The translations under genes and the position numbers were made by a program. A model generated the notes under the pieces. It did not search any database, had not been told where the DNA came from, and saw nothing but the letters and a program-made list of their open reading frames with translations. 15,090 bases of DNA from an uncultured Bacillota bacterium (GTDB lineage: Bacteria; Bacillota; Clostridia; Peptostreptococcales; Anaerovoracaceae): contig CAMNJK010000010.1 of NCBI GenBank assembly GCA_946541435.1, forward strand, positions 1-15,090, read 5' to 3'. Positions within the stretch are counted from its first letter, which is position 1; each line of letters begins with the position of its first letter. Shown here in pieces: positions 1 through 15,090 of this stretch.

Positions 1-303
1 CGACAGCCCCGCCAGCAGGAATACGAAGACCCCGAGACTGCAGAGATGCAAAGGCAGGTAACCCACGTCGAACACACCCCCATGAATCAGAAAGCTGTCT
101 TTGAACACTTCCAGAGCGATCATCAAAAAAGGGATCCCCTTCAGTATCCGCTTCTGATGATGCTCCGGCTGCCTGCGGAATGCTGTCACGCAGCAGATGA
201 TCAGCAGAGTGAGCGCAGCAAGAATACAGATGTGCGGCAGACTGAACCGCTCGTACCCTGTTCCTTCCGGCAGCTGACTGTATTGTTTCCAGAAATACTC
301 CAT
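1..303 (-). CDS. YwaF/TIGR02206-like integral membrane protein, 5' part only
   Basis: Reading the minus strand from the ATG at 303 gives 101 residues that run off the left edge of the window. The protein starts MEYFWKQYSQLPEG and has a first hydrophobic helix at about residues 27-43 (ILAALTLLIICCV), a basic loop, a second hydrophobic segment and then YLPLHLCSLGVFVFLLAG. The HLC-in-a-helix signature and the short helix-loop-helix start fit the TIGR02206/YwaF family of multi-pass membrane proteins, whose function is not known. A purine-rich ribosome site (GAGAGGACGGAG) directly precedes the ATG, and an extended -10 box lies about 25 bases further upstream. The gene is divergent from the first Fn3 gene. 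The family call rests on memory of the motif and on under half of the protein, so it is moderate. Confidence 0.72.
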   Translation of the reverse strand, partial: MEYFWKQYSQLPEGTGYERFSLPHICILAALTLLIICCVTAFRRQPEHHQKRILKGIPFLMIALEVFKDSFLIHGGVFDVGYLPLHLCSLGVFVFLLAGLS

Positions 304-328
304 CTCCGTCCTCTCTGTTACTGTAAAA

Positions 329-337
329 GTATATCAT
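329..337 (-). promoter_or_regulatory. Extended -10 promoter of the YwaF-like gene
   Basis: The minus strand reads TGATATACT here, which is an extended -10 (TGn plus TATACT). It lies about 25 bases before the start codon at 303. No good -35 box is seen at the expected distance, which is tolerated when the TGn element is present. Confidence 0.5.
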
Positions 338-415
338 CCCCGACCTGTCTCCGCATCAGGATCAGTATTTTTATTTTTCAACCGTTTTAACGCGCTGACG
401 TGACGAATCTATTAG

Positions 416-445
416 TGGACATTCTTGTCGCGTTCTTGCTATAAT
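416..445 (+). promoter_or_regulatory. Promoter of the first Fn3 gene pair
   Basis: TGGACA (416-421), an 18-base spacer and a perfect TATAAT (440-445) preceded by TG-C (extended -10). It lies 61 bases before the ATG at 507. The stretch 304-506 between the divergent genes otherwise shows only AT-rich sequence (361-385) and no coding potential that I can support. Confidence 0.7.
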
Positions 446-506
446 GAGATGTCAGAATGTTTCAACTCTTATTCGTTGGGAATGAGCCAGAAAGGAGTGT
501 GATTTG

Positions 507-1601
507 ATGAACATGGCAAATAACAGAACATCCCGCATGACCCTGCATATTCTTTTTATTGCTGTTATTTCCACCGTCTGTCTGTGCTTCGCCGCCATGC
601 AGGCGCCAGCTTTTGCTGCGAAAACCCCCGGGAAGGTCAGCAATGTGCAGATCTCTTCTGTCGGGGATTATTGGTTTACAGTATCCTGGGCGCCTGCGAA
701 AAACACCCAGACCTACGAAGTTCAATGCAAAAAAGCATCCGCAAAAAAATGGCCCAAATCAGGCCTTATTACATCAGATTACGATTTAGATGTATCAGTC
801 AATTATGCTGACACAAAATATCAGGTGCGCATCCGTGGCATCAACGGTAAAAAACGCGGCAGCTGGTCCAGTGTAAAATCCTTACGGACATTGCTCCCCA
901 AACCCAAAGCCATCTGGGCCAAGTCCATCACCAACGCATCCATTGAGGTTCAATGGATGCCGATCCAAGGCATCAAGGAATTCAAACTGACCCGGTTCGA
1001 CGAAGGCGGTGACGAGATCGATCATGTGATCGTGAAAGGCACCAGTTATGAATACACGGATCTTGGGGATGCCATGTATTACCACTTCGAACTTCAATCA
1101 AAGAACGGCAGTAAGCTGTCCGTACCTGTCTTTGTTGATCTGAATACCTTTGGCGATGACAATGTGCTGGAGCAGCATGACTATCCCTACGCCGTCTACT
1201 ACACCATGAAGTATTTCACCGCAGATGTCAGCTTCAACGCTTTCCCTGTCCTCTACGATATCTACACCGATGATGACGGCGAGGTGGAGGATGAAGGCTT
1301 CTTCTACCCTGGGGTGGAAGTCGATCAGTTCAGCATTGAAAAAAACAGAGGAATCCTTTCCCAGGATTACGGTGAGATGGAAACGCCCGTCACATCTGAT
1401 CTGACACTGCAAAAAGGCGGAACTGTAACTGCGCCGGACGGCAGCGTCCTGCACATCACCAAACTGCGGATCACAGCTGCCGATTCCAATCTCGCGAAGT
1501 TGGATTACTATTACGAATTAAGAGATAAAATAAAAGAACCCTATCTGCGGATCGATACCGAAGAAGACAGGCCCATCTACATCACATGGACTTGTGATTA
1601 A
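507..1601 (+). CDS. Secreted Fn3-repeat protein, paralog 1 of 3
   Basis: A 364-residue exported protein of unknown role. Residues 13-38 are a hydrophobic signal sequence ending in PAFA, a good signal peptidase I site. Two Fn3 domains follow (about 40-128 and 133-216); the first carries KKASAKKW and the strand YQVRIRGINGKKRGSWSSVKS. The last 150 residues form a domain that I do not recognise, shared with the two paralogs: blocks VLYDIYTDDDGEVEDEGFFY, TAPDGS near 308-313, and YYYELRDKI near 334-342, ending in a W-rich strand. There is no LPXTG or lipobox, so it is probably released or non-covalently bound. I chose ATG 507 because AAAGGAG (491-497) sits 9 bases away, matching paralog 2; a TTG at 504 and an ATG at 513 are alternatives. 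It is the most divergent paralog and lacks the C-terminal DDC/EDC cysteine. It is 20 bases from paralog 2 and shares its promoter. Confidence 0.85.
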   Translation: MNMANNRTSRMTLHILFIAVISTVCLCFAAMQAPAFAAKTPGKVSNVQISSVGDYWFTVSWAPAKNTQTYEVQCKKASAKKWPKSGLITSDYDLDVSVNYADTKYQVRIRGINGKKRGSWSSVKSLRTLLPKPKAIWAKSITNASIEVQWMPIQGIKEFKLTRFDEGGDEIDHVIVKGTSYEYTDLGDAMYYHFELQSKNGSKLSVPVFVDLNTFGDDNVLEQHDYPYAVYYTMKYFTADVSFNAFPVLYDIYTDDDGEVEDEGFFYPGVEVDQFSIEKNRGILSQDYGEMETPVTSDLTLQKGGTVTAPDGSVLHITKLRITAADSNLAKLDYYYELRDKIKEPYLRIDTEEDRPIYITWTCD

Positions 1602-1621
1602 GAAGAAAGGAGTGAATATCG

Positions 1622-2731
1622 ATGCTTACGAACAATGAAACATCATCCCGCAGGATCATACACATCCTGTTGATCTTCATGATCGCCTTATTCGCCATCG
1701 GCTTCTTGGCAGTGAACACACCTGCATCTGCAGATGTGAAGCCGGCGCAGGTGAAAGGATTACAGTTCTACTATGTGGATGATCTGTCCTTCACTGCAGC
1801 ATGGGATGAGGCTATGAACGCTGAGTTCTATCAGGTTCAGTATAAAAAGGCATCCGCAAAGAAATGGTACGATCTCGGTAGTTTCAGCGAGGCCAGCTAT
1901 GACTTTGAAGTGCCCAAATCTGATACCAAATACAATGTTCGGGTCCGGGGGATCAACGGAAGCAAAGCCGGCAAATGGTCCTCTGTGAAATCTGTACGGA
2001 CAACGATCATGAGGCCTAGGGCCATCTGGTGCACTCACATCGATGATTCCTCTATTGAGGTCACGTGGGCGTCATCCGCCGGCGCGAAAGAATACGTACT
2101 GACCTGGGACGACATGTCATCTGACACTCTGGGATCCAAGACCGTCAAGAAGACACAGACAAGTTACCTGGTGACAGGTCTGCAGTCATCCTGCGGCTAC
2201 AGTTTCCAGGTCCGGGCGAAAAACGGCAAAAAGAAATCGCAGCAGGTCTCGGTCGACACCTCCACCTACGATGAAACCAACGTACTGGATCTGCCCTACC
2301 CCTCAGCATCCTACTTCACCCTGACCAGATTCACCCAGCATGGCAGCGAATATGACATGCCCGTCCTGTACGATACTTGGACGGATTCGGAAGGGTATGT
2401 GGAAGACCAGGGCTTCTACTTCATGGACATGGAACTGCAGGAACTTGTCGTGAAAGATGCCATCCTCAGTCAACAGAATCAGGCAGATGTGCCGATCAAA
2501 TCCGGCATCACCTATAAAGTGGGCGAAAAGATCACAGCGCCGGACGGTTCAGATTACACCATTTCCGGTCTGCGTCTGTACACCACGCCCAACATTGTCT
2601 TCGATGACTGTGATTACTATAGAGATGCCTATGAGAAGATCGATGATTTCACTGTAATTGTCAGTATTGAAGAACATCCTGCGAATCCACTGTTCATATA
2701 CTGGGAGAACAAACCCTATTGGGAATGGTAG
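1622..2731 (+). CDS. Secreted Fn3-repeat protein, paralog 2 of 3
   Basis: A 369-residue paralog with the same layout: signal peptide with a likely cut after PASA (residue 37), an Fn3 domain with VQYKKASAKKW and VRVRGINGSKAGKWSSVKS, a second Fn3 domain beginning PRAIW, and the unrecognised C-terminal domain (VEDQGFYF, TAPDGS, NIVFDDCDYYRDAYEKID). It ends with a short extra tail, NKPYWEW. AAAGGAG (1606-1612) lies 9 bases before the ATG. The gene is only 20 bases after paralog 1 with no promoter or terminator between, so the two are very probably cotranscribed. A rho-independent terminator follows its stop. Its C-terminal domain is closer to paralog 3 than to paralog 1. Fn3 domains in such proteins usually mediate adhesion or act as spacers; the ligand is unknown. 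Confidence 0.85.
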   Translation: MLTNNETSSRRIIHILLIFMIALFAIGFLAVNTPASADVKPAQVKGLQFYYVDDLSFTAAWDEAMNAEFYQVQYKKASAKKWYDLGSFSEASYDFEVPKSDTKYNVRVRGINGSKAGKWSSVKSVRTTIMRPRAIWCTHIDDSSIEVTWASSAGAKEYVLTWDDMSSDTLGSKTVKKTQTSYLVTGLQSSCGYSFQVRAKNGKKKSQQVSVDTSTYDETNVLDLPYPSASYFTLTRFTQHGSEYDMPVLYDTWTDSEGYVEDQGFYFMDMELQELVVKDAILSQQNQADVPIKSGITYKVGEKITAPDGSDYTISGLRLYTTPNIVFDDCDYYRDAYEKIDDFTVIVSIEEHPANPLFIYWENKPYWEW

Positions 2732-2741
2732 CTGAAAGCAG

Positions 2742-2770
2742 AAACCGGGACAGCCATGCCCCGGTTTTTT
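2742..2770 (+). terminator. Rho-independent terminator after Fn3 paralog 2
   Basis: AAACCGGG (2742-2749) pairs with CCCGGTTT (2760-2767) around a 10-base loop and runs into six T residues. It starts 10 bases after the stop at 2731 and faces the convergent sfsA gene. On the minus strand the following T run is interrupted, so it should work mainly for the plus strand. Confidence 0.85.
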
Positions 2771-2786
2771 GTTTCGAAAAAAGAGA

Positions 2787-3458
2787 TCACGCCATCGTGG
2801 TCACACCGGTGATCTCCAGGCTGTCTGTCTCCACATGGCAGGTGAAGAACAGGACCTCCACCCCGGCCCTGACCGCATCCTCCAGGGACTCTGCAAAGGC
2901 TGGATGGGTCCCGGTATTGGGCCTGACTTCCCTGACCCCGTCCATCTGGATCACGAAAGCCAGCGCAGCATGGAAGCCTTCTTCCCTGGCCCGGATCAGT
3001 TCCCGGATGTGTTTGATGCCCCGCTCCGTGGGCGCATCCGGGAAATAGCCGATGCCGTCCACCTCCAGGGTACAGCCTTTGACCTCCATCAGGTACCGGT
3101 CGCCGGAAGATCGTTCCATATAGAAATCGATGCGGGAATCACCGAAGGTGAATTCCGGAAGGACCTTACTGTAATCCTGCGTCCTGAGCCACTCCCCTGC
3201 CACCTTGTTGGGCGCCTGGCTGTCGATGTTGAACAGAACGCCGTTGGATTTCCTGACGGTGACCAGATCGTAGGCAGTTTTCCTGCCCGGTGTGCCCGGC
3301 GCCGTCAGCCAGACCTCACAGCCGGGGATCAAGAGCTCCCTGCACCTGCCGGTGTTCTTCACATGTACCAGTTCCTTCTTCCCGTTCAGTTCCACTTCCG
3401 CAGCGAACCGGTTCAGCCGCCGCAGGAACATTGCTTTTGTAATATTACTGTATCTCAA
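2787..3458 (-). CDS. sfsA: SfsA family DNA/RNA nuclease-like protein
   Basis: A 223-residue protein, close to the usual length of about 230. It opens RYSNITKAMFLRRLNRFAAE and has the family hallmarks VHVKNTGRCRELL (31-43), PNKVAGEWLR and a PD-(D/E)XK-like core with D111 in RIDFYMER and E125-V-K127 in YLMEVKGCTLE, then NTGTHPAF. SfsA was named for stimulating maltose fermentation in E. coli; the fold joins an OB-like domain to a nuclease-like domain and its true role is unsettled. A GTG at 3482 would give 8 more residues but sits at the predicted transcription start. The TTG at 3458 has AAGGAG 7 bases upstream and starts where homologs start, so I use it. The gene is convergent with Fn3 paralog 2 and divergent from paralog 3. 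Confidence 0.93.
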   Translation of the reverse strand: MRYSNITKAMFLRRLNRFAAEVELNGKKELVHVKNTGRCRELLIPGCEVWLTAPGTPGRKTAYDLVTVRKSNGVLFNIDSQAPNKVAGEWLRTQDYSKVLPEFTFGDSRIDFYMERSSGDRYLMEVKGCTLEVDGIGYFPDAPTERGIKHIRELIRAREEGFHAALAFVIQMDGVREVRPNTGTHPAFAESLEDAVRAGVEVLFFTCHVETDSLEITGVTTMA

Positions 3459-3487
3459 TGGACTTCTCCTTATCGATCTCACAGACG

Positions 3488-3496
3488 ATTATAACA
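3488..3496 (-). promoter_or_regulatory. Extended -10 promoter of sfsA
   Basis: The minus strand reads TGTTATAAT (3496 down to 3488), a perfect -10 with the TGn extension; no clear -35 is seen. Transcription would begin near 3481, leaving a leader of about 23 bases with AAGGAG and a TTG start. Confidence 0.62.
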
Positions 3497-3516
3497 CCTG
3501 GACGATCTGCAGGTGT
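3494..3516. promoter_or_regulatory. Inverted repeat, candidate operator between divergent promoters
   Basis: ACACCTG (3494-3500) and CAGGTGT (3510-3516) form a perfect 7-bp inverted repeat with a 9-base spacer. The left arm overlaps the TGn of the sfsA -10 and the right arm reaches the -35 position of Fn3 paralog 3. Position suggests an operator; no matching regulator is in the window. Confidence 0.4.
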
Positions 3517-3543
3517 ACTTTTGAAACATCTCTATGGTATAAT
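3515..3543 (+). promoter_or_regulatory. Promoter of Fn3 paralog 3
   Basis: TATAAT at 3538-3543 preceded by TG-G (extended -10). The -35 position (3515-3520, GTACTT, 17-base spacer) matches poorly. The distance from the -10 to the ATG is 60 bases, almost the same as the 61 bases in front of paralog 1. Confidence 0.65.
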
Positions 3544-3603
3544 TGTTTATCTGAATATTTAAATTACATCCCTCAAGTATGACATCAAAGGAGTGTGATC
3601 AGA

Positions 3604-4698
3604 ATGAGCATGACCAATAACGCGCGAACCCGCAGAACCGTGCATCTGCTGCTGATTGCCCTGGCGGTATGCCTGGGACTCAGCATCGCCGCCGTACAGT
3701 CGCCAGCCTTTGCGGCAAAAACACCGGCCAAGGTATCCGGGCTGAATGTCATCGATGTCAATGACTTCTCAGTCACCATCGAATGGAACAAGGCCAAGAA
3801 CGCCAAGCGGTACGAGTATCAGTACAAGAAAGCCTCCGCCAAGAAATGGCCAAAAGGCGTGGACGTCACCTACGACACCTACGCGGACATCGATCTGACC
3901 TCCAGCAACACCAAATACCAGATCCGTGTCCGGGGCGTGAACGGCAGCAAGCGGGGCAAATGGTCCTCCGCGAAGACGGTGTGCACCCTTCTGCAGACGC
4001 CCTATGCCATCTGGGCCACCTACATCGATCATTCTGCCATTGAACTGGCGTGGTACCCTGTGGACGGCGTCGAAGAATATGTTCTGACCTGGGATCAGGG
4101 TGACGGGGATATCGTCGGCGAAAAGACCGTCAAAGGCACCAGCTATCGTGTGGAAAGCCTCAATGAGCTGAATTTCTACTGCTTCACAGTTCAGGCAGTG
4201 AAATCCGGTGCTCCCACCTCCAAACCCGCTGTGGTGGAGCTCTACACCTTCGATCAGAACAACAGGCTTGAAACAGATCCCAACGGAGCGCTCAAATTGA
4301 GATCCTTCAGCCAGAACGACAATCTCACTGACGTGCTCCCCGCCATGTACATGATCAACATTGATTCGGAGTATAACGTGGAAGAGCAGGGATTCTACTT
4401 CCCGGATCTGGAGCTCCAGGAACTGGCGATCACGAAGGGCGCCACCCTGAACCAGACCAGCAGAGGGGACGTCGCACTCACCTCCCAGACCTTCCGGGTC
4501 GGCGAGACGTTCACAGCGCCGGATGGTTCCGAGCAGAAGATCACCCGTCTGAAGCTCACCACAGAGCCCAACATCGTCTTCGAAGACTGTCAGTATTACA
4601 AGGATGCCTATGATAAGATCGAAAAATTCATCGTTGACATTTATACCGAAGACCATCCCCTGGAAGGCACGCCCTTCTATGTCGAATGGGAGCACTAA
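3604..4698 (+). CDS. Secreted Fn3-repeat protein, paralog 3 of 3
   Basis: A 364-residue paralog with the same plan: signal peptide ending SPAFA (residue 37), first Fn3 domain with YQYKKASAKKWPK and IRVRGVNGSKRGKWSSAK, second Fn3 domain beginning PYAIWATYID, then the unrecognised C-terminal domain (VEEQGFYFPDLELQEL, TAPDGS, NIVFEDCQYYKDAYDKIE, ending FYVEWEH). The ATG at 3604 is 10 bases after AAAGGAG (3587-3593); the GTG at 3595 is too close to that site. The 13 bases AAAGGAGTGTGAT in the leader are identical to those of paralog 1. It stands alone between its own promoter and terminator. By eye it is more GC-rich than paralog 1. It is probably secreted; function unknown. Confidence 0.86.
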   Translation: MSMTNNARTRRTVHLLLIALAVCLGLSIAAVQSPAFAAKTPAKVSGLNVIDVNDFSVTIEWNKAKNAKRYEYQYKKASAKKWPKGVDVTYDTYADIDLTSSNTKYQIRVRGVNGSKRGKWSSAKTVCTLLQTPYAIWATYIDHSAIELAWYPVDGVEEYVLTWDQGDGDIVGEKTVKGTSYRVESLNELNFYCFTVQAVKSGAPTSKPAVVELYTFDQNNRLETDPNGALKLRSFSQNDNLTDVLPAMYMINIDSEYNVEEQGFYFPDLELQELAITKGATLNQTSRGDVALTSQTFRVGETFTAPDGSEQKITRLKLTTEPNIVFEDCQYYKDAYDKIEKFIVDIYTEDHPLEGTPFYVEWEH

Positions 4699-4708
4699 TA
4701 AAACCCAA

Positions 4709-4760
4709 AAAACCGGGGCAGCCGTCCATCTCCAGCGGGCGGGTCTGTCCCGGTTTTCTG
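4709..4760. terminator. Bidirectional terminator between Fn3 paralog 3 and the flavodoxin gene
   Basis: AAAACCGGG (4709-4717) pairs with CCCGGTTTT (4749-4757), and the stem can extend inward by CA/TG pairs. The plus strand continues TTTTCTG; the minus strand continues in a run of six T. It lies between converging stops at 4698 and 4772 and can serve both units. Its stem is the same as that of the terminator at 2742-2770. Confidence 0.8.
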
Positions 4761-4771
4761 TTCTTCTGATA

Positions 4772-5518
4772 TCAGTCCAGCTTGTCCAGCATTTTCTTGC
4801 AGATGAAATAGGACACGGTCATGTCAATGGCGTACAGGGACAGGTAGAGAGCCGTGCAGAACTTGGCGTGCTTCCGATAATTCCAGTTGCTGAAATACTT
4901 CCGGACATCCTCTCTGGAAACCGACGGCAGCTTGTCTTTTGATATGGTTGGCAGCTTGTCTCTGGAAACAGGTCTGACAGCGGCCCGGACTCTTCTGTGC
5001 AAAGGCTGGCCGGTCCTGTTCCCCGCCCCCAGTTCGATCAGGGCATCGCCGAACTCATCGATGGCAGCGTCCGTTTCTTTTGCCTTCTTACGCCCGGGTT
5101 CGATAAAGACGCCCTCCACTTCAAAGGCTTCGATGCGGAGCAGCTTCCGCAGCGCCTTCAACGCCTTTTCGGCGCCGGAGCTTTTCTGGCAGGCGAAAGC
5201 GGAGACCTGTTTGCGTCTCAGCTTTCCCCGGTGGGCTGCGATGAATGTCCGAAGGGGCGGCGCGAAGCTGGCCGCCCAGACCGGGAAACCGAATACGATA
5301 TGGCCGTATCTGGAAAGATCCACATCGTATTCTTCCAGCGGGGGTTTCTCTGCCAGCAATACGCTTTTCCCTCCCTGGAGGAACTTCTTCAGCCCCTTGT
5401 TCCGGTATTCCTTCGTCGGTACCAGCCGCAGTGTATCCGCGCCGATCCGCGCAGCGATCCGCTCTGCCGCGTAGGCCGTGTTGCCGCTCATGGAATAGTA
5501 AACGATCAGTGTTTTCAT
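4772..5518 (-). CDS. Flavodoxin with C-terminal repeat and membrane-anchor-like tail
   Basis: A 248-residue protein. Residues 1-165 are a flavodoxin fold: KTLIVYYSMSGNTAYAAERI holds the FMN phosphate loop (S9-M-S-G-N-T), and YGHIVFGFPVWAASFAPPL (71-89) is the flavin-side loop after the third strand. Flavodoxins of about 150-165 residues are usual; here about 80 residues follow. These contain three 8-residue repeats (181-204), a basic stretch and a hydrophobic segment (219-240, CTALYLSLYAIDMTVSYFIC) that could dock to the membrane although it contains an Asp. The redox partner is unknown; the upstream ferredoxin-type aldo/keto reductase in the same unit is a possible one (inference). GGAGG (5526-5530) precedes ATG 5518. 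Last gene of the unit, 24 bases after the YjbQ gene. Confidence 0.88.
   Translation of the reverse strand: MKTLIVYYSMSGNTAYAAERIAARIGADTLRLVPTKEYRNKGLKKFLQGGKSVLLAEKPPLEEYDVDLSRYGHIVFGFPVWAASFAPPLRTFIAAHRGKLRRKQVSAFACQKSSGAEKALKALRKLLRIEAFEVEGVFIEPGRKKAKETDAAIDEFGDALIELGAGNRTGQPLHRRVRAAVRPVSRDKLPTISKDKLPSVSREDVRKYFSNWNYRKHAKFCTALYLSLYAIDMTVSYFICKKMLDKLD
4907..4978 (-). repeat. Three tandem 24-bp repeats inside the flavodoxin tail
   Basis: Units at 4978-4955, 4954-4931 and 4930-4907 encode VRPVSRDK, LPTISKDK and LPSVSRED. The DNA units are imperfect copies of each other (for example CTTGTCT at the start of two units and CTCTGGAAA in two, read on the plus strand). They keep the reading frame and lie between the flavodoxin domain and the hydrophobic tail. 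Confidence 0.8.
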
Positions 5519-5542
5519 TTGGATCCCTCCATTTCTCCTGCC

Positions 5543-5959
5543 TTATTCTCCGATGATCTTGATCAGGAGACGCTTGTCCCGTTTCCCGTCAAATTCGTAA
5601 TAGAAGATCTGCTCCCAGGTGCCGAAGTCCAGCCGTCCTTCCGTGATGGCCACCACCGATTCCCGGCCCATGAGGCTGCGCTTCAGGTGGGCGTCGGCAT
5701 TATCCTCGAAACCATTGTGATCGTACTGCTCATAGGGCTTCTCCGGGACCAGCCGCTCCAGCAGCCGCTCATAATCCCGGTGAAGACCGGACTCATCGTC
5801 ATTGATGATCACGCTGGCGGTGATGTGCATGGGGTTGACCAGGCAGAGGCCCTCTTTGACGCCGCTCTCATCCACCGCCTGCTGGACATCTCTGGTGATG
5901 TTGACCAGGCCCCGCCGGGTGGGAAGGTTGAAGTGAAGTACTTTTCTGTATGATTTCAT
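5543..5959 (-). CDS. yjbQ: YjbQ family protein (UPF0047)
   Basis: A 138-residue protein, the normal family length. Family blocks in order: [15 protein letters not shown] (42-56), [16 protein letters not shown] (79-83), [12 protein letters not shown] (87-98), [18 protein letters not shown] (108-125) and the terminal strand LLIKIIGE. The conserved H45, H81 and H91 are all present and are the likely metal or substrate ligands. Members are annotated as secondary thiamine-phosphate synthases because of weak activity that complements E. coli mutants; the physiological role is not settled. AAGGAGGA lies 4-5 bases before the ATG at 5959. It is 22 bases after the GTPase gene and 24 bases before the flavodoxin gene. 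No thiamine genes are nearby. Confidence 0.93.
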
Positions 5960-5981: not shown

Positions 5982-7139
5982 CTACTTGACGATCAGTTTC
6001 AGGATGGTCTGGGTGATCTCTTTTTTGCTTGAACTGGCGGAGATTCCCTGCAGGGCGATGTTGACACGTTTCAGGAAATCCGATGAGAAACTGTCTTCCA
6101 TGATCTTTTTCACCCAGTCGATGTCCTCCAGGCTTTTTTTGCCCTGATAGATCTGCTCAAAAGCATAGACCGATCCTTCGCCCAGGGCAGCCGCGATGCT
6201 GCCGGCGATCACCGCGTTCAGGACACTGGCCGCGATGTTGATCCCCGGGATGGATTTGATGGCGCTGATGGCAGCTCTGGCAACGGTACTGATGGTGCCC
6301 ACTTCTACAATGGTATTGATGAATGTTTTGGACTTATCGTCCTTGCCGATGCCGTAGAGCCGGGCAATGGCATTCACTTCCGCGATCTCCACCGGCGTCA
6401 GGATGGCCGCGTCCGCCAGAGGAATGGGGATGGCTCCCACCACCACTGCGGCAGTGGTGGCCGTTCCAACGATGCTGTGAGCCAGCGCCCGCTTCCGGTT
6501 CAGATTGAATTTGGCGACGTCTTCTCTCCCAGCCTTGATTCCGTCCGGCATGACCTGATTGGTGGCGTCGATCAGTTCCGTGATCCCTTCAGGAGCCGCG
6601 AAAGCTGTTTCATTCAGCGCGTAGGTCTTCGCCACCACGGGGATGACCTTCTTCAGATTTCTTCCCCGCTTCCGCTTTTCAAAGGCCTCGAAGACCATCC
6701 CCGCGTTATCCAGCCGTTCCGGTACTGAATAGGACTTGGTGATGACCACGATGATGGGGACAGACTTCCATATGGATGTAGCCCGGATCAGGGTATCGAT
6801 GGATCTCCGGACGTGTTTCTTCGAAGTCCCGTCCACACAGAACCAGATGACGTTGATATCGCTGTCTTCCGTATTTGCCTTCGCTCTTTCTCTCGACCAT
6901 TTCCTTACCGCGCTGATGGCCTGACGCCCCCTGCGGGTGGATGGTTCAAATCCAATGGTATCGATCAGGCGAAAAGGAAGCTCATCGCTCTCATAGATCT
7001 CCAGACGGTCAGTTCCTCCCCAGGCTCCCCAGCCCGTCTTCGCTCTTTCTTCTCCTAACACGGCATTGATCAGGGTCGATTTCCCGGCCCCTTTATTGCC
7101 AATGACCAGTACATTGCCTCTGTTCATCTTCAGTATCAC
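5982..7139 (-). CDS. GTPase with C-terminal DUF697-like domain
   Basis: A 385-residue P-loop GTPase (Era/YcjX-like TRAFAC type, no closer name). G1 is GNKGAGKST (14-22), a G2-like threonine lies in GGTD (41-44), G3 is DTIG (60-63), and the G4 position reads VITKSYS (132-138) instead of the usual NKxD. The C-terminal part, about 215-330, is rich in Ala, Ile and Gly with [19 protein letters not shown], typical of DUF697 (YcjF-like) domains that associate with membranes. The reading starts at a GTG overlapping the previous stop by 4 bases (GTGA), which suggests translational coupling; an ATG at 7127 is the alternative and would keep the whole P-loop. No strong ribosome site precedes either. Substrate or partner unknown. 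Confidence 0.88.
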
Positions 7140-11892: not shown

Positions 11893-13119
11893 TTATCTTA
11901 CCTTGACTTTCCTGATTTTGCTCCAGTCCGACGCGCCGGCATCATTCAGGGCTCTGACGCGCACGAAGTATGTCCTGCCGGACTGAAGTCCTTTGACCTT
12001 CAGCGTTGTGGCATCGCCGGTATCCACCGTGTCCGCTGCCTTCATTTTCTTTTTCAGACTGAACTGGACTTCATAGCTTACTGCCTGATCTTCCGGTTCC
12101 CATGTGACCGTGAAGGTGCGCCTGCCTTTTTTGATTTTGCTGATGGTCGGAGCATCCGGCGGCATTTTCTTCACCTGAATGGTCCTGGCGCATGTCATTC
12201 CGCTCTTGTTGCCATAAAAGCCCAGCTCGGCTGTGATCGTTGCAGTTCCTTCACTGACCCCGGTCACCACGCCGCTGTCCACCGTCGCCACAGTTTCGTC
12301 TGAGGATGTCCAGCTGATCTCAGGCAAAACCAGGCTGGTTCCATTATAGCCAGCTTTTGCTGTAAATGTCCTGGTACCACCCAAAGGAACGTCGTCTCCC
12401 TTCAGCGAAAGGCTGACTTCATTCCTGGGGATTACCAGCAGCTGGATACAGTCACCGTAGATTCCCGTCCTTTCCTCCGAAATGCCGCTTGCTGAGGTAA
12501 ACTCCGCGCAGACACTGTTCCATGTTCCTTTGGCCTGGAAGGATCCGATACCAATGTGTGTATACTCCGGATCGATCAGGGCTTCATAATGTCCCGTCTC
12601 CTGCCCCGTATTTTTGACCAGGTCATACTTCTCGGAATACCACAGTTCGACAGCTCCCAGAGCTCTGACGCCCCAGGCCAGATTCTCCCCATAACTGGAG
12701 ACATTGTTCACCGACATATTGAATACATATCCGCCCTTGGGCCGTACATGATCCTCTTTCACAGAAGCCTCCGCCGATCTGATCTGGGCGATGTACTCCA
12801 GAGCGTCAGACCATCTTATGGGAACATAAGAACTTGCGAGTCCTTCCTGCCAGGCTTCCCTGCGGATCTCGTTGATCCGATCCAGAACCTGATCCGCGTC
12901 CACGTTTTCATAGCTTCCGCGAACCCCTAAGAGGGTCTCTGAACCAGCGATCTGAGTCACACCGGGTGCCAGCATTTCCGGGTCAGTTTCCCCTGCTGCC
13001 TGAAGCGTGATCATGCCATCTTTGTCTGCTGTCTGCTGCGTCGTTGCGCTTACGCCGGCGGGAAGAAATGCCAACAGCATCAGTATCGTTGTCAGAATAA
13101 GTGCGGTCTTTTTGAGCAT
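11893..13119 (-). CDS. Secreted CAP-domain protein with Big2 and Fn3 domains
   Basis: A 408-residue exported protein. Residues 1-25 are a signal peptide (KKTALILTTILMLLAFLPAG, cut likely after VSA). A CAP/SCP-like domain spans about 75-212: H124 (DHVRPKG), E145 (GENLAWG), E163 in LWYSEKY and H177 (GHYEALIDPEYTHIGIG) are the usual cavity residues. A Big2 bacterial Ig-like domain follows (about 233-315, ISWTSSDETVATVDSG and GTATITA), then one Fn3 domain (about 320-408) ending WSKIRKVKVR. Bacterial CAP proteins are secreted and mostly of unknown activity. GAGGAG lies 9 bases before the ATG. Its Fn3 is not the KKASAKKW type of the three paralogs. Its stop is 3 bases before the GNAT gene. Confidence 0.93.
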   Translation of the reverse strand: MLKKTALILTTILMLLAFLPAGVSATTQQTADKDGMITLQAAGETDPEMLAPGVTQIAGSETLLGVRGSYENVDADQVLDRINEIRREAWQEGLASSYVPIRWSDALEYIAQIRSAEASVKEDHVRPKGGYVFNMSVNNVSSYGENLAWGVRALGAVELWYSEKYDLVKNTGQETGHYEALIDPEYTHIGIGSFQAKGTWNSVCAEFTSASGISEERTGIYGDCIQLLVIPRNEVSLSLKGDDVPLGGTRTFTAKAGYNGTSLVLPEISWTSSDETVATVDSGVVTGVSEGTATITAELGFYGNKSGMTCARTIQVKKMPPDAPTISKIKKGRRTFTVTWEPEDQAVSYEVQFSLKKKMKAADTVDTGDATTLKVKGLQSGRTYFVRVRALNDAGASDWSKIRKVKVR

Positions 13120-13156: not shown

Positions 13157-14089
13157 TCAGTCATCTGCCCAGTTGCTTACGTCGATAAACATAATATTGT
13201 TACCGTAATAGTACACCGAGAGGTAGTCTCCCTGGGTGTTCTTGGCGAAAAAGCTCCTGTCATACTTGCTGTAGTCGATGGTATAGCCCGCGTCCTGGCA
13301 TGCGCGGATGTACTGGTTGAATTCCTTTTCGCTGGTATCGCCCACATACACCTCGAAGTATTCCGGGGTCTCCAGTTCCACCCGGCCCAGGTTCGATTCC
13401 GGCGCCGGAAGACGTTTGCCTACGCCGGTGCGGGGCCAGTCGATCTCATCCATCCGGATGGGTTCCGCCAGCAGGATGCGCATGGATTCGTCAAAACTGT
13501 AATAATACAGATCCAGCCGGTAGCCTTCTTCGTTGAAGACCTTCACATTGTGGCTGCTGTCATTGTATTCATCCACGGTATAACCCATCTGCCGGCACTG
13601 CTCAAGATAGTCCTGCATATCTGTTTCCGCAGCCGGAGTAAGTTCCACGTTCAGCGCTCCGCTGGAGTTCTCATTGATGTAGCCCGTGCTCAGCTCCGGA
13701 ACCGGCAGCTTGTCGGAAAGCACCAGAGAGTTCCAGTCGATCTCCGACGGCGCTTCACGCCGGCTGTAATCCGTATCCTTGTGCACCGCCAGGGGAATGA
13801 TGATGGCAAGCAGGGCCACCGCGATCACGATCAGGATGATGGCCGCTTTTTTTCCTTTCCTGCGTTTCCCGTTCTTTTTCCCGATGTCCGCAGGATTCCG
13901 CAGGACAGCTTTATTGACTTGCTGTTCCTCTTGTCTGCGTCTCTCAGCCGCCTCCTTTTCGGCCTGGCTGACCGGGATCTCAAAAACTGATCCGCAGCTC
14001 TGACAAACGGATCTGTGCTTTTCATGGTCCACCACCAGCTCACCGCCGCAGTTGGGGCATTCGATCTTTTTCAGGCGTTCCTCTCCCAT
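13157..14089 (-). CDS. Zinc-ribbon membrane protein with duplicated extracellular DUF6591-like domain
   Basis: A 310-residue single-pass membrane protein. A zinc ribbon comes first (C11, C14, C29, C32 in CPNC and CQSC), then a charged helix (EKEAAERRRQEEQQ), a basic patch KKNGKRRKGKK and one transmembrane helix (about 81-102). Outside, two copies of one domain follow: 117-208 and 216-305. Each begins IDW, continues LP-x-P-E and contains a Cys and a G-Y (YLEQCRQMGYTVDEY and YIRACQDAGYTIDYS), then YYY near its end. This repeat resembles what I remember as DUF6591; that name is tentative. The zinc ribbon faces the cytoplasm, as positive-inside predicts. AAGGATC lies about 6 bases before ATG 14089. 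It follows the 114-residue protein gene by 43 bases. Role probably in sensing or scaffolding at the membrane (inference). Confidence 0.85.
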   Translation of the reverse strand: MGEERLKKIECPNCGGELVVDHEKHRSVCQSCGSVFEIPVSQAEKEAAERRRQEEQQVNKAVLRNPADIGKKNGKRRKGKKAAIILIVIAVALLAIIIPLAVHKDTDYSRREAPSEIDWNSLVLSDKLPVPELSTGYINENSSGALNVELTPAAETDMQDYLEQCRQMGYTVDEYNDSSHNVKVFNEEGYRLDLYYYSFDESMRILLAEPIRMDEIDWPRTGVGKRLPAPESNLGRVELETPEYFEVYVGDTSEKEFNQYIRACQDAGYTIDYSKYDRSFFAKNTQGDYLSVYYYGNNIMFIDVSNWADD

Positions 14090-14132: not shown

Positions 14133-14477
14133 TTACTTTGATGCCTTACAGATGATGCTGCGTTCTCTGACAAGTCCCAGCAGTTCTGCTTCCAGGGCGC
14201 TGACCTTTTCCAGGTCCTCTTCTTTCCCCTCCGCCGTCAGCACCGCGTCCCGGAAATCACCGAAGACCCGCTGGATCTTCAGATTGATGTCGAACACGGT
14301 ATCATCCGACACCGGATCGGTGTATCGGAAGGTTTCATAAACCTTTTCCGTCGCCTTCCGAAACAAAGGGGCTGCATCTGTCATCAGATCCTCCGCCTCC
14401 GCCGTCAGCCGGCGAAACAGCATGGTAGATCTCTGCTGCCTGTCCCGGAACTGCAGAATGTTCAGTTCGCTGCTCAT
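14133..14477 (-). CDS. Small helical protein of unknown function, partner of the SPFH gene
   Basis: A 114-residue soluble protein that I do not recognise. It is rich in charged residues and leucine and looks mainly alpha-helical (LFRRLTAEAEDLMTDAAPLFRKATEK, then ILRDAVL-like and EEDLEKVSALEAELLGLVRER heptads near 85-106 that could form a coiled coil). It has no signal peptide, membrane segment or zinc motif. The ATG at 14477 overlaps the stop of the SPFH gene by 4 bases (ATGA) and has GAGGTG 7 bases upstream, so it is a real, coupled gene. The overlap suggests that it works with the SPFH protein. Confidence 0.8.
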   Translation of the reverse strand: MSSELNILQFRDRQQRSTMLFRRLTAEAEDLMTDAAPLFRKATEKVYETFRYTDPVSDDTVFDINLKIQRVFGDFRDAVLTAEGKEEDLEKVSALEAELLGLVRERSIICKASK

Positions 14478-15090
14478 GATTTTTCACCTCTTCTGGCGCC
14501 GCATCCGGGACAGAAATTGCCCGGACGGACGAAAACATATCCGCAGACAGGGCATTTTTCCCCGGTTCCCGCCACAGGGGCGCCGCAGGAATCGCAGAAC
14601 AAAGATCCCTCTATGATGGGCGCGCCGCAGTTCTCACAGTACTGCACCCGCTCGTCCCGGACGATCTTCGTTACCAGAAAACGCTCCAGCGACAGACCAT
14701 ACTCCGCAAAATCATCCCGGAGCATGTCCGTAAGCCGATCAGAGATCCTGTCCAGCTTCTCATCGATTTCGTGGATGCTGACCTCACCGTTTCTGATCAG
14801 CTGGGCCAGATAGGACTTTACCTGCACAACGATCAGTCCACGGAAGAATCTCTGCAGTTCCTCCTGGGTGAAATCATCATCTGTACCCACCAGTTTGATC
14901 AGCATCTTCCTGCTGTCCGCCACCCGGACGGACATCTCGCCGGAGGCGCCCAGGGATACGGACGTCCCTTCACCGGGTTCAATGAGCCGGATCCTGCTGT
15001 CCGTTCCCCACTTGATGGCCATTTCATCTGATTTGTTGATGAAATACACCTGACAGTGAAAAGGCGACCTTCCCCCGGTGACCAGCTTCA
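14474..15090 (-). CDS. SPFH-domain protein with C-terminal zinc ribbons (YdjI-like), 3' part
   Basis: The reading frame is open to the right edge of the window, so the start lies outside; an internal GTG at 15049 is not the start. The visible 204 residues begin KLVTGGRSPFHCQVYFINK and continue MAIKWGTDSRIRL, a stretch typical of the SPFH proteins of the YdjI type (the so-called virion core protein-like group). The SPFH helix region (DDFTQEELQRFFRGLIVVQV, then DFAEYGLSLERFLVTKI) follows. The last 55 residues hold four CxxC knuckles (CENC, CDSC, CPVC, CPGC; about 14638-14500), two zinc ribbons in a row. Such proteins in Bacillus localise to the membrane and act with PspA-like proteins in envelope stress. 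The next gene overlaps it by 4 bases. Confidence 0.9.
   Translation of the reverse strand, partial: KLVTGGRSPFHCQVYFINKSDEMAIKWGTDSRIRLIEPGEGTSVSLGASGEMSVRVADSRKMLIKLVGTDDDFTQEELQRFFRGLIVVQVKSYLAQLIRNGEVSIHEIDEKLDRISDRLTDMLRDDFAEYGLSLERFLVTKIVRDERVQYCENCGAPIIEGSLFCDSCGAPVAGTGEKCPVCGYVFVRPGNFCPGCGARRGEKS

What the first reader, a model, noticed from the sequence alone, without database searches (positions are those of the whole stretch)
507..4698. Three-member family of secreted Fn3 proteins with an unrecognised C-terminal domain
Three paralogs of nearly equal length (364, 369, 364) share signal peptide, two Fn3 domains and a C-terminal domain of about 150 residues that fits no family I know. 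The conserved blocks are VE[DE]xGF[FY][YF], TAPDGS and YYxxxxxKI. The Fn3 part carries the KKASAKKW signature. No wall anchor is present. Three copies retained in a small region suggest a shared, diversified surface or secreted function.
Basis: partly seen in the sequence, partly recalled or inferred. Interest (0 to 1): 0.75.

Follow-up and report, generated by a model that had tools for sequence, protein, structure and literature searches.

The report
Secreted Fn3 trio with orphan domain
Three neighbouring genes of one uncultured bacterium encode related secreted-type proteins, each two common spacer domains plus an end domain that matched nothing we could search; it looks like a small lineage-specific family of binding proteins, modestly interesting, with its function untested.

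Summary
Three + strand ORFs (507-1601, 1622-2731, 3604-4698; 364, 369, 364 aa) share a signal-peptide-like start, two Fn3 domains and an acidic C-terminal domain of about 150 residues (33-48% identity; z 22-53 against shuffles). The Fn3 part is ordinary. The C-terminal domain has no Pfam, NCBIfam or PDB sequence match up to E 10 and no Foldseek match at E <= 0.001. A profile of it found full-length copies only in this genome among 49 genus and 349 family genomes; other hits there and in sampled order, class and phylum genomes were short and unconvincing. Two three-sequence AlphaFold models (pLDDT 67, 70) show a mostly beta domain with a short helix.

Several Fn3 proteins of these genomes have a signal peptide, then Fn3, then an enzyme-like domain; the orphan domain takes that last place. 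Best reading: P1-P2 are an operon, P3 a separate unit; the proteins are exported and present the acidic domain as a ligand-binding module. Function is inferred. The 5.8-billion-protein database was unavailable, so orphan status is provisional.

The parts
507..1601 (+). P1, secreted-type Fn3-Fn3-orphan-domain protein, 364 aa
   Evidence: ORF; Pfam fn3, 2 stretches; RBS AAAGGAGTG read
1622..2731 (+). P2, paralog, 369 aa, 20 bases after P1
   Evidence: ORF; Pfam fn3, 2 stretches; RBS AAAGGAGTG
3604..4698 (+). P3, paralog, 364 aa from ATG 3604 (one search lists the frame from GTG 3595)
   Evidence: ORF; Pfam fn3, 2 stretches; RBS AAAGGAGTG
633..872 (+). first Fn3 domain of P1
   Evidence: PF00041 match
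2015..2254 (+). second Fn3 domain of P2
   Evidence: PF00041 match
3730..3969 (+). first Fn3 domain of P3
   Evidence: PF00041 match
4024..4233 (+). second Fn3 domain of P3
   Evidence: PF00041 match
1146..1598 (+). orphan C-terminal domain of P1 (residues 214-364)
   Evidence: alignment; no family match; model of residues 215-364
2261..2728 (+). orphan C-terminal domain of P2 (residues 214-369)
   Evidence: alignment; no family match; model of residues 212-369
4243..4695 (+). orphan C-terminal domain of P3 (residues 214-364)
   Evidence: alignment; no family match
416..445 (+). promoter-like site before P1 (TGGACA, 18, TATAAT with TG before it; 11 of 12)
   Evidence: consensus match only
2745..2770 (+). 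terminator-like hairpin and T run after P2
   Evidence: read by eye; its 10-base loop is outside the range of the scan
3535..3543 (+). extended -10-like TGGTATAAT before P3
   Evidence: read by eye; not in the list
4713..4757 (+). terminator-like hairpin with a long loop (about 23 bases) and T run after P3
   Evidence: read by eye; not in the list
2787..3482 (-). sfsA, between P2 and P3; probably not part of the system
   Evidence: Pfam SfsA; present without the trio in the five sister stretches fetched

Best explanation
A small, lineage-restricted family of secreted modular binding proteins. Shown: signal-peptide-like N-terminus, two Fn3 modules, no recognisable anchor, and a conserved C-terminal domain shared by the three and not found in the other genomes searched. 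Inferred: after Sec export and cleavage at an AxA-type site, the two mildly basic Fn3 modules act as a stalk (perhaps resting on the anionic cell wall), and the acidic, aromatic-rich, mostly beta C-terminal domain (net charge -16 to -20) is the working part, binding a ligand such as a glycan, a protein or a cation outside the cell. P1-P2 appear to be an operon and P3 a separate unit; duplication and divergence under purifying selection gave three binders of related but perhaps different specificity.
For: Architecture. Several Fn3 proteins of the genus run signal peptide, Fn3, then another domain that looks like NlpC/P60, YkuD, SGNH, transglutaminase, M28-like peptidase or carboxylesterase (all names except Fn3 by eye), so the orphan domain takes the place of the working domain. 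It is about as conserved as the second Fn3 (33-48% against 39-45%), with dN/dS 0.26-0.39. Models of two different paralogs give the same elements from about residue 35 on. Charge split: Fn3 part +7, +7, +3; C-terminus -19, -20, -16. The 34 invariant columns of the C-terminal alignment show no obvious catalytic motif (by eye).
Against: No ligand, fold match or genomic partner points to binding. Both models are moderate in confidence and built on three sequences; most of their first 33 residues are below pLDDT 50. In other Fn3 proteins (the CAP protein of this window; subtilase-like ones) Fn3 is at the C-terminal end, so the 'stalk then working domain' order is not a rule. A net charge of -16 or lower is not unique: 2.8% of overlapping 150-residue stretches of the ten other window proteins of that length reach it. 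Promoter-like sites in 300-5600 were fewer than in shuffles (2 against a mean of 4.6) and the terminators and the P3 -10 site were read by eye, so the operon limits are weak. Enzymes can lack a recognisable motif.
Confidence: 0.45

Rival explanations
1. The C-terminal domain is a strongly diverged member of a known extracellular beta family (Ig-like, jelly-roll or carbohydrate-binding, barrel) that sequence tools miss because only three sequences are available. This may be true together with the best explanation.
For: Mostly beta models. One weak hit (7.2e-5 for one genome, 391 genomes searched) falls in a secreted multidomain protein, in a stretch that looks to me like a carbohydrate-binding jelly roll (by eye). 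Barrel-like folds recur among the insignificant Foldseek rows.
Against: No Foldseek hit at E <= 0.001 in PDB or viral models; TM-scores to the query are 0.10-0.26 in the 50 rows listed of each search. No Pfam or NCBIfam match up to E 10. DUF4352, tested through two relatives, did not match, though the same test barely saw Fn3 against Fn3.
Confidence: 0.35
2. The C-terminal domain is a secreted enzyme, enzyme inhibitor or competition effector of an undescribed family.
For: Other Fn3 proteins in these genomes carry enzyme-like domains at the same place (by eye); narrow distribution is common for effectors (general knowledge).
Against: No conserved catalytic-looking set of residues (by eye); the one cysteine of each domain is shared by P2 and P3 but not by P1; no neighbour that looks like an immunity gene (by eye).
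Confidence: 0.15
3. The family is not restricted to this lineage: it occurs in genomes or metagenomes that these tools did not hold. This concerns distribution and may be true together with any of the others.
Against: Searches asking for more genomes than were returned covered 49 genus and 349 family genomes, apparently all held; two genome-contig scans confirmed no relative.
Confidence: 0.3

Closest known systems
Fibronectin type III domain (PF00041)
   Same: Two matching stretches in each of the three proteins
   Different: Covers only about residues 40-215; says nothing of the C-terminal part
G008 protein (locus L015): signal peptide + two Fn3 + about 170-residue C-terminus
   Same: Best relative outside this genome in the genus search with the full-length profile (5e-23, positions 7-210); same architecture, similar length (387-aa frame)
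   Different: Its C-terminus does not match the orphan domain (best blastp E 1.1, hhalign probability 0.3%)
CAP + Big_2 + Fn3 protein of the same window (11893-13119)
   Same: Secreted-type Fn3 protein of the same contig
   Different: Fn3 is at the C-terminus and the probable working domain is CAP
DUF4352 (PF11611)
   Same: A resemblance of the VGExxT...IT stretch, which I recalled as a lead
   Different: Profile comparison with two relatives negative (0.4%, a weak test); not found in G000 at E 1e-6

Membership tests
Fn3 (PF00041) | match above the curated cut-off | tested here: met
   46.5-63.7 bits against 25 in all three, two stretches each
Sec-secreted, non-lipoprotein, non-sortase proteins | signal peptide; no lipobox, LPxTG or other membrane segment | tested here: met
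   hydropathy and motif scan; no dedicated signal-peptide predictor was available
LPxTG-anchored surface adhesins | C-terminal LPxTG motif and hydrophobic segment | tested here: not met
Any Pfam or NCBIfam family for the C-terminus | match to a curated model | tested here: not met
   0 families up to E 10 for all three C-termini
DUF4352 | profile similarity over the domain | tested here: inconclusive
   probability 0.4%, but the control Fn3-2 against Fn3-1 reached only 3.5%, so the test is weak at this depth; no Pfam match
Known solved fold | significant structural match | tested here: inconclusive
   none at E <= 0.001, but the models are moderate in confidence and no library of predicted cellular proteins was on hand
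Polymorphic toxin | variable toxin tip with an adjacent immunity gene | tested here: not met
   recognised neighbours are sfsA, a flavodoxin-like gene and each other; judged by eye, no toxin library was searched
Extracellular ligand-binding protein | binds a ligand outside the cell | not testable with these tools
   needs protein

The most novel reading that the evidence does not exclude
The C-terminal domain is a new beta fold or at least a new domain family, born or captured within one lineage, multiplied by local duplication and used as an exported binding tip.
Probability: 0.25. Interest if true: 0.5.

Novelty: new variant of a known kind. Interest (0 to 1): 0.32.

Why it matters
If the restriction holds, this is a clean case of a lineage-specific secreted domain with three diverged copies on a common Fn3 chassis, useful for asking where new extracellular domains come from. 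It solves no standing question by itself, and orphan secreted domains in uncultured bacteria are common (general knowledge, not from a call).

Tried and rejected
DUF4352 as the C-terminal family: no support, weak test. A third Fn3: no similarity of either Fn3 to the C-terminus (z -0.6 to 0.7; hhalign 0.2 and 0.5%) and no Pfam match there; but Fn3-1 against Fn3-2 was itself clear only in P2 (z 6.4; 0.3 in P1, -0.2 in P3), so this measure is weak. Internal repeat of the C-terminus: none (z -1.0 to 0.5).

Weak hits in other genomes were read. G281 and G290 look like ThrE-type transporters, G086 and G300 like PASTA-domain kinases, G319 ComEA-like, G212 and G272 like sugar-metabolism enzymes, G138 a Der-like GTPase, G180 transposase-like, G679 a secreted multidomain protein, G565 FliD-like (names by eye). 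These matches are short or partial, and E-values are for one genome among hundreds. G008's C-terminus as a diverged relative: no support. The three motifs of the finding, scanned in 86 other loci: 5 hits, all of the loose YYxxxxxKI form.

Link with sfsA: five sister stretches have sfsA without the trio. PADLOC: no match for the full proteins up to E 1. PHROGs: for the C-termini only E 0.06-0.25, four different families. Plasmids: P2 full length, two records, Fn3 part only; P3 C-terminus, none. Phages: P2 C-terminus, none. Viral contigs: C-terminal alignment and P3 C-terminus, none; full-length alignment, one Fn3 match. Paper searches: one search returned no paper; of the others I saw listings with abstract openings and opened no paper. 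They were general and do not show that the family is not in print.

Full report
OBSERVATION. The window is one whole contig (G000:C10, 15090 bases) of a 1.65 Mb, 253-contig genome estimated 79% complete. The three ORFs are as described. P1 and P2 are 20 bases apart; P3 follows the minus-strand sfsA. All three start behind the same AAAGGAGTG; P1 and P3 share AAAGGAGTGTGAT. A promoter-like site precedes P1 (the scan found fewer such sites than shuffles give), and hairpins with CCGGG stems and T runs follow P2 and P3 (by eye). So the duplicated unit may have reached from the ribosome site to the terminator.

DOMAINS. Pfam sees Fn3 twice in each protein and no other family above its cut-off. Cut out, the C-termini have no Pfam or NCBIfam match up to E 10, only insignificant PHROG matches, and as an alignment no PDB chain up to E 10. 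Segment identities: signal 32-49%, Fn3-1 50-52%, Fn3-2 39-45%, C-terminus 33-48%. P2 and P3 are closest in the C-terminus although P1 and P2 are adjacent. dN/dS is 0.22-0.33 over whole genes with dS 1.7-2.5, so these values are rough.

STRUCTURE. The P1 domain modelled at pLDDT 67.4, pTM 0.60 and the P2 domain at 69.7 and 0.63, each on three sequences. From about residue 35 on both show mostly strands, one long strand at 100-110 or 100-111, one helix at 122-127 and two last strands; the first 33 residues are largely unreliable and differ. Foldseek gave 0 of 824 and 0 of 395 PDB matches at E <= 0.001, and 0 of 361 for viral models, where only the P2 model was searched.

DISTRIBUTION. C-terminal profile: 1 of 49 genus genomes, this one; 2 of 349 family genomes at E <= 0.001, the second, G281, being about 40 residues of a ThrE-like protein at 9.7e-4, where 349 searches would give about 0.3 such hits by chance; 10 of 296 at E <= 0.1, this genome and nine weak partial hits; order 2 of 393 and class 3 of 391 at E <= 0.01, the extra hits (G086; G679 and G565) partial; phylum 1 of 319 at E <= 0.001, this one. 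These sets overlap and all contain this genome. Many of the genomes are incomplete. Two scans of genome contigs matched patterns (262 and 193 stretches) but confirmed no relative; those scans may leave out very near genomes. Full-length profile: 11 of 49 genus genomes at E <= 1e-10, the other ten through positions 1-214 only.

SURROUNDINGS. sfsA matches in 39 of 49 genus genomes. In the four closest (70-74% identity) and one further genome, the fetched stretches showed sfsA and no match to any trio protein at E 1e-5; one stretch is only 3.6 kb. The gene cut off at the window start has a relative about 2.7 kb from sfsA in G041, in another order. Fn3 is frequent here: 10 matching places in G000, five of them in this window, and 30 in G030. 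The Fn3 proteins read look like peptidases, esterases, NlpC/P60-like and YkuD-like enzymes and others, with Fn3 before the enzyme-like part in some and at the C-terminal end in others such as the subtilase-like ones (names by eye).

MECHANISM. Export and absence of an anchor are read from the sequence. The rest, an Fn3 stalk and an acidic C-terminal binding tip, is inference from architecture, charge and the beta prediction.

VERDICT. A real, constrained, apparently lineage-restricted family with an unrecognised domain on an ordinary chassis. Novel as a domain family only provisionally, since the largest protein collection could not be searched.

Noticed in passing
11893-13119: Secreted-type CAP + Big_2 + Fn3 protein on the minus strand of the same contig.
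   Followed up: partly
1-2500: The P1 and P2 region has G+C of about 0.48-0.49 in 1-kb windows against 0.52-0.59 elsewhere; P3 lies at 0.53-0.54.
   Followed up: no
13157-14089: Zinc-ribbon protein with two DUF6591 stretches, E 8e-45, near an SPFH/zinc-ribbon gene at 14474-15049.
   Followed up: no
5982-7139: GTPase with a DUF697-like C-terminus.
   Followed up: no
L035: The sfsA match of G023 holds one in-frame TAA.
   Followed up: no
L015: G008 protein with signal peptide, two Fn3 domains and its own C-terminus of about 170 residues without a Pfam match up to E 1.
   Followed up: partly
L065 5001-5492: A viral contig encodes an Fn3-like stretch 29% identical to residues 22-197 of the query.
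   Followed up: no
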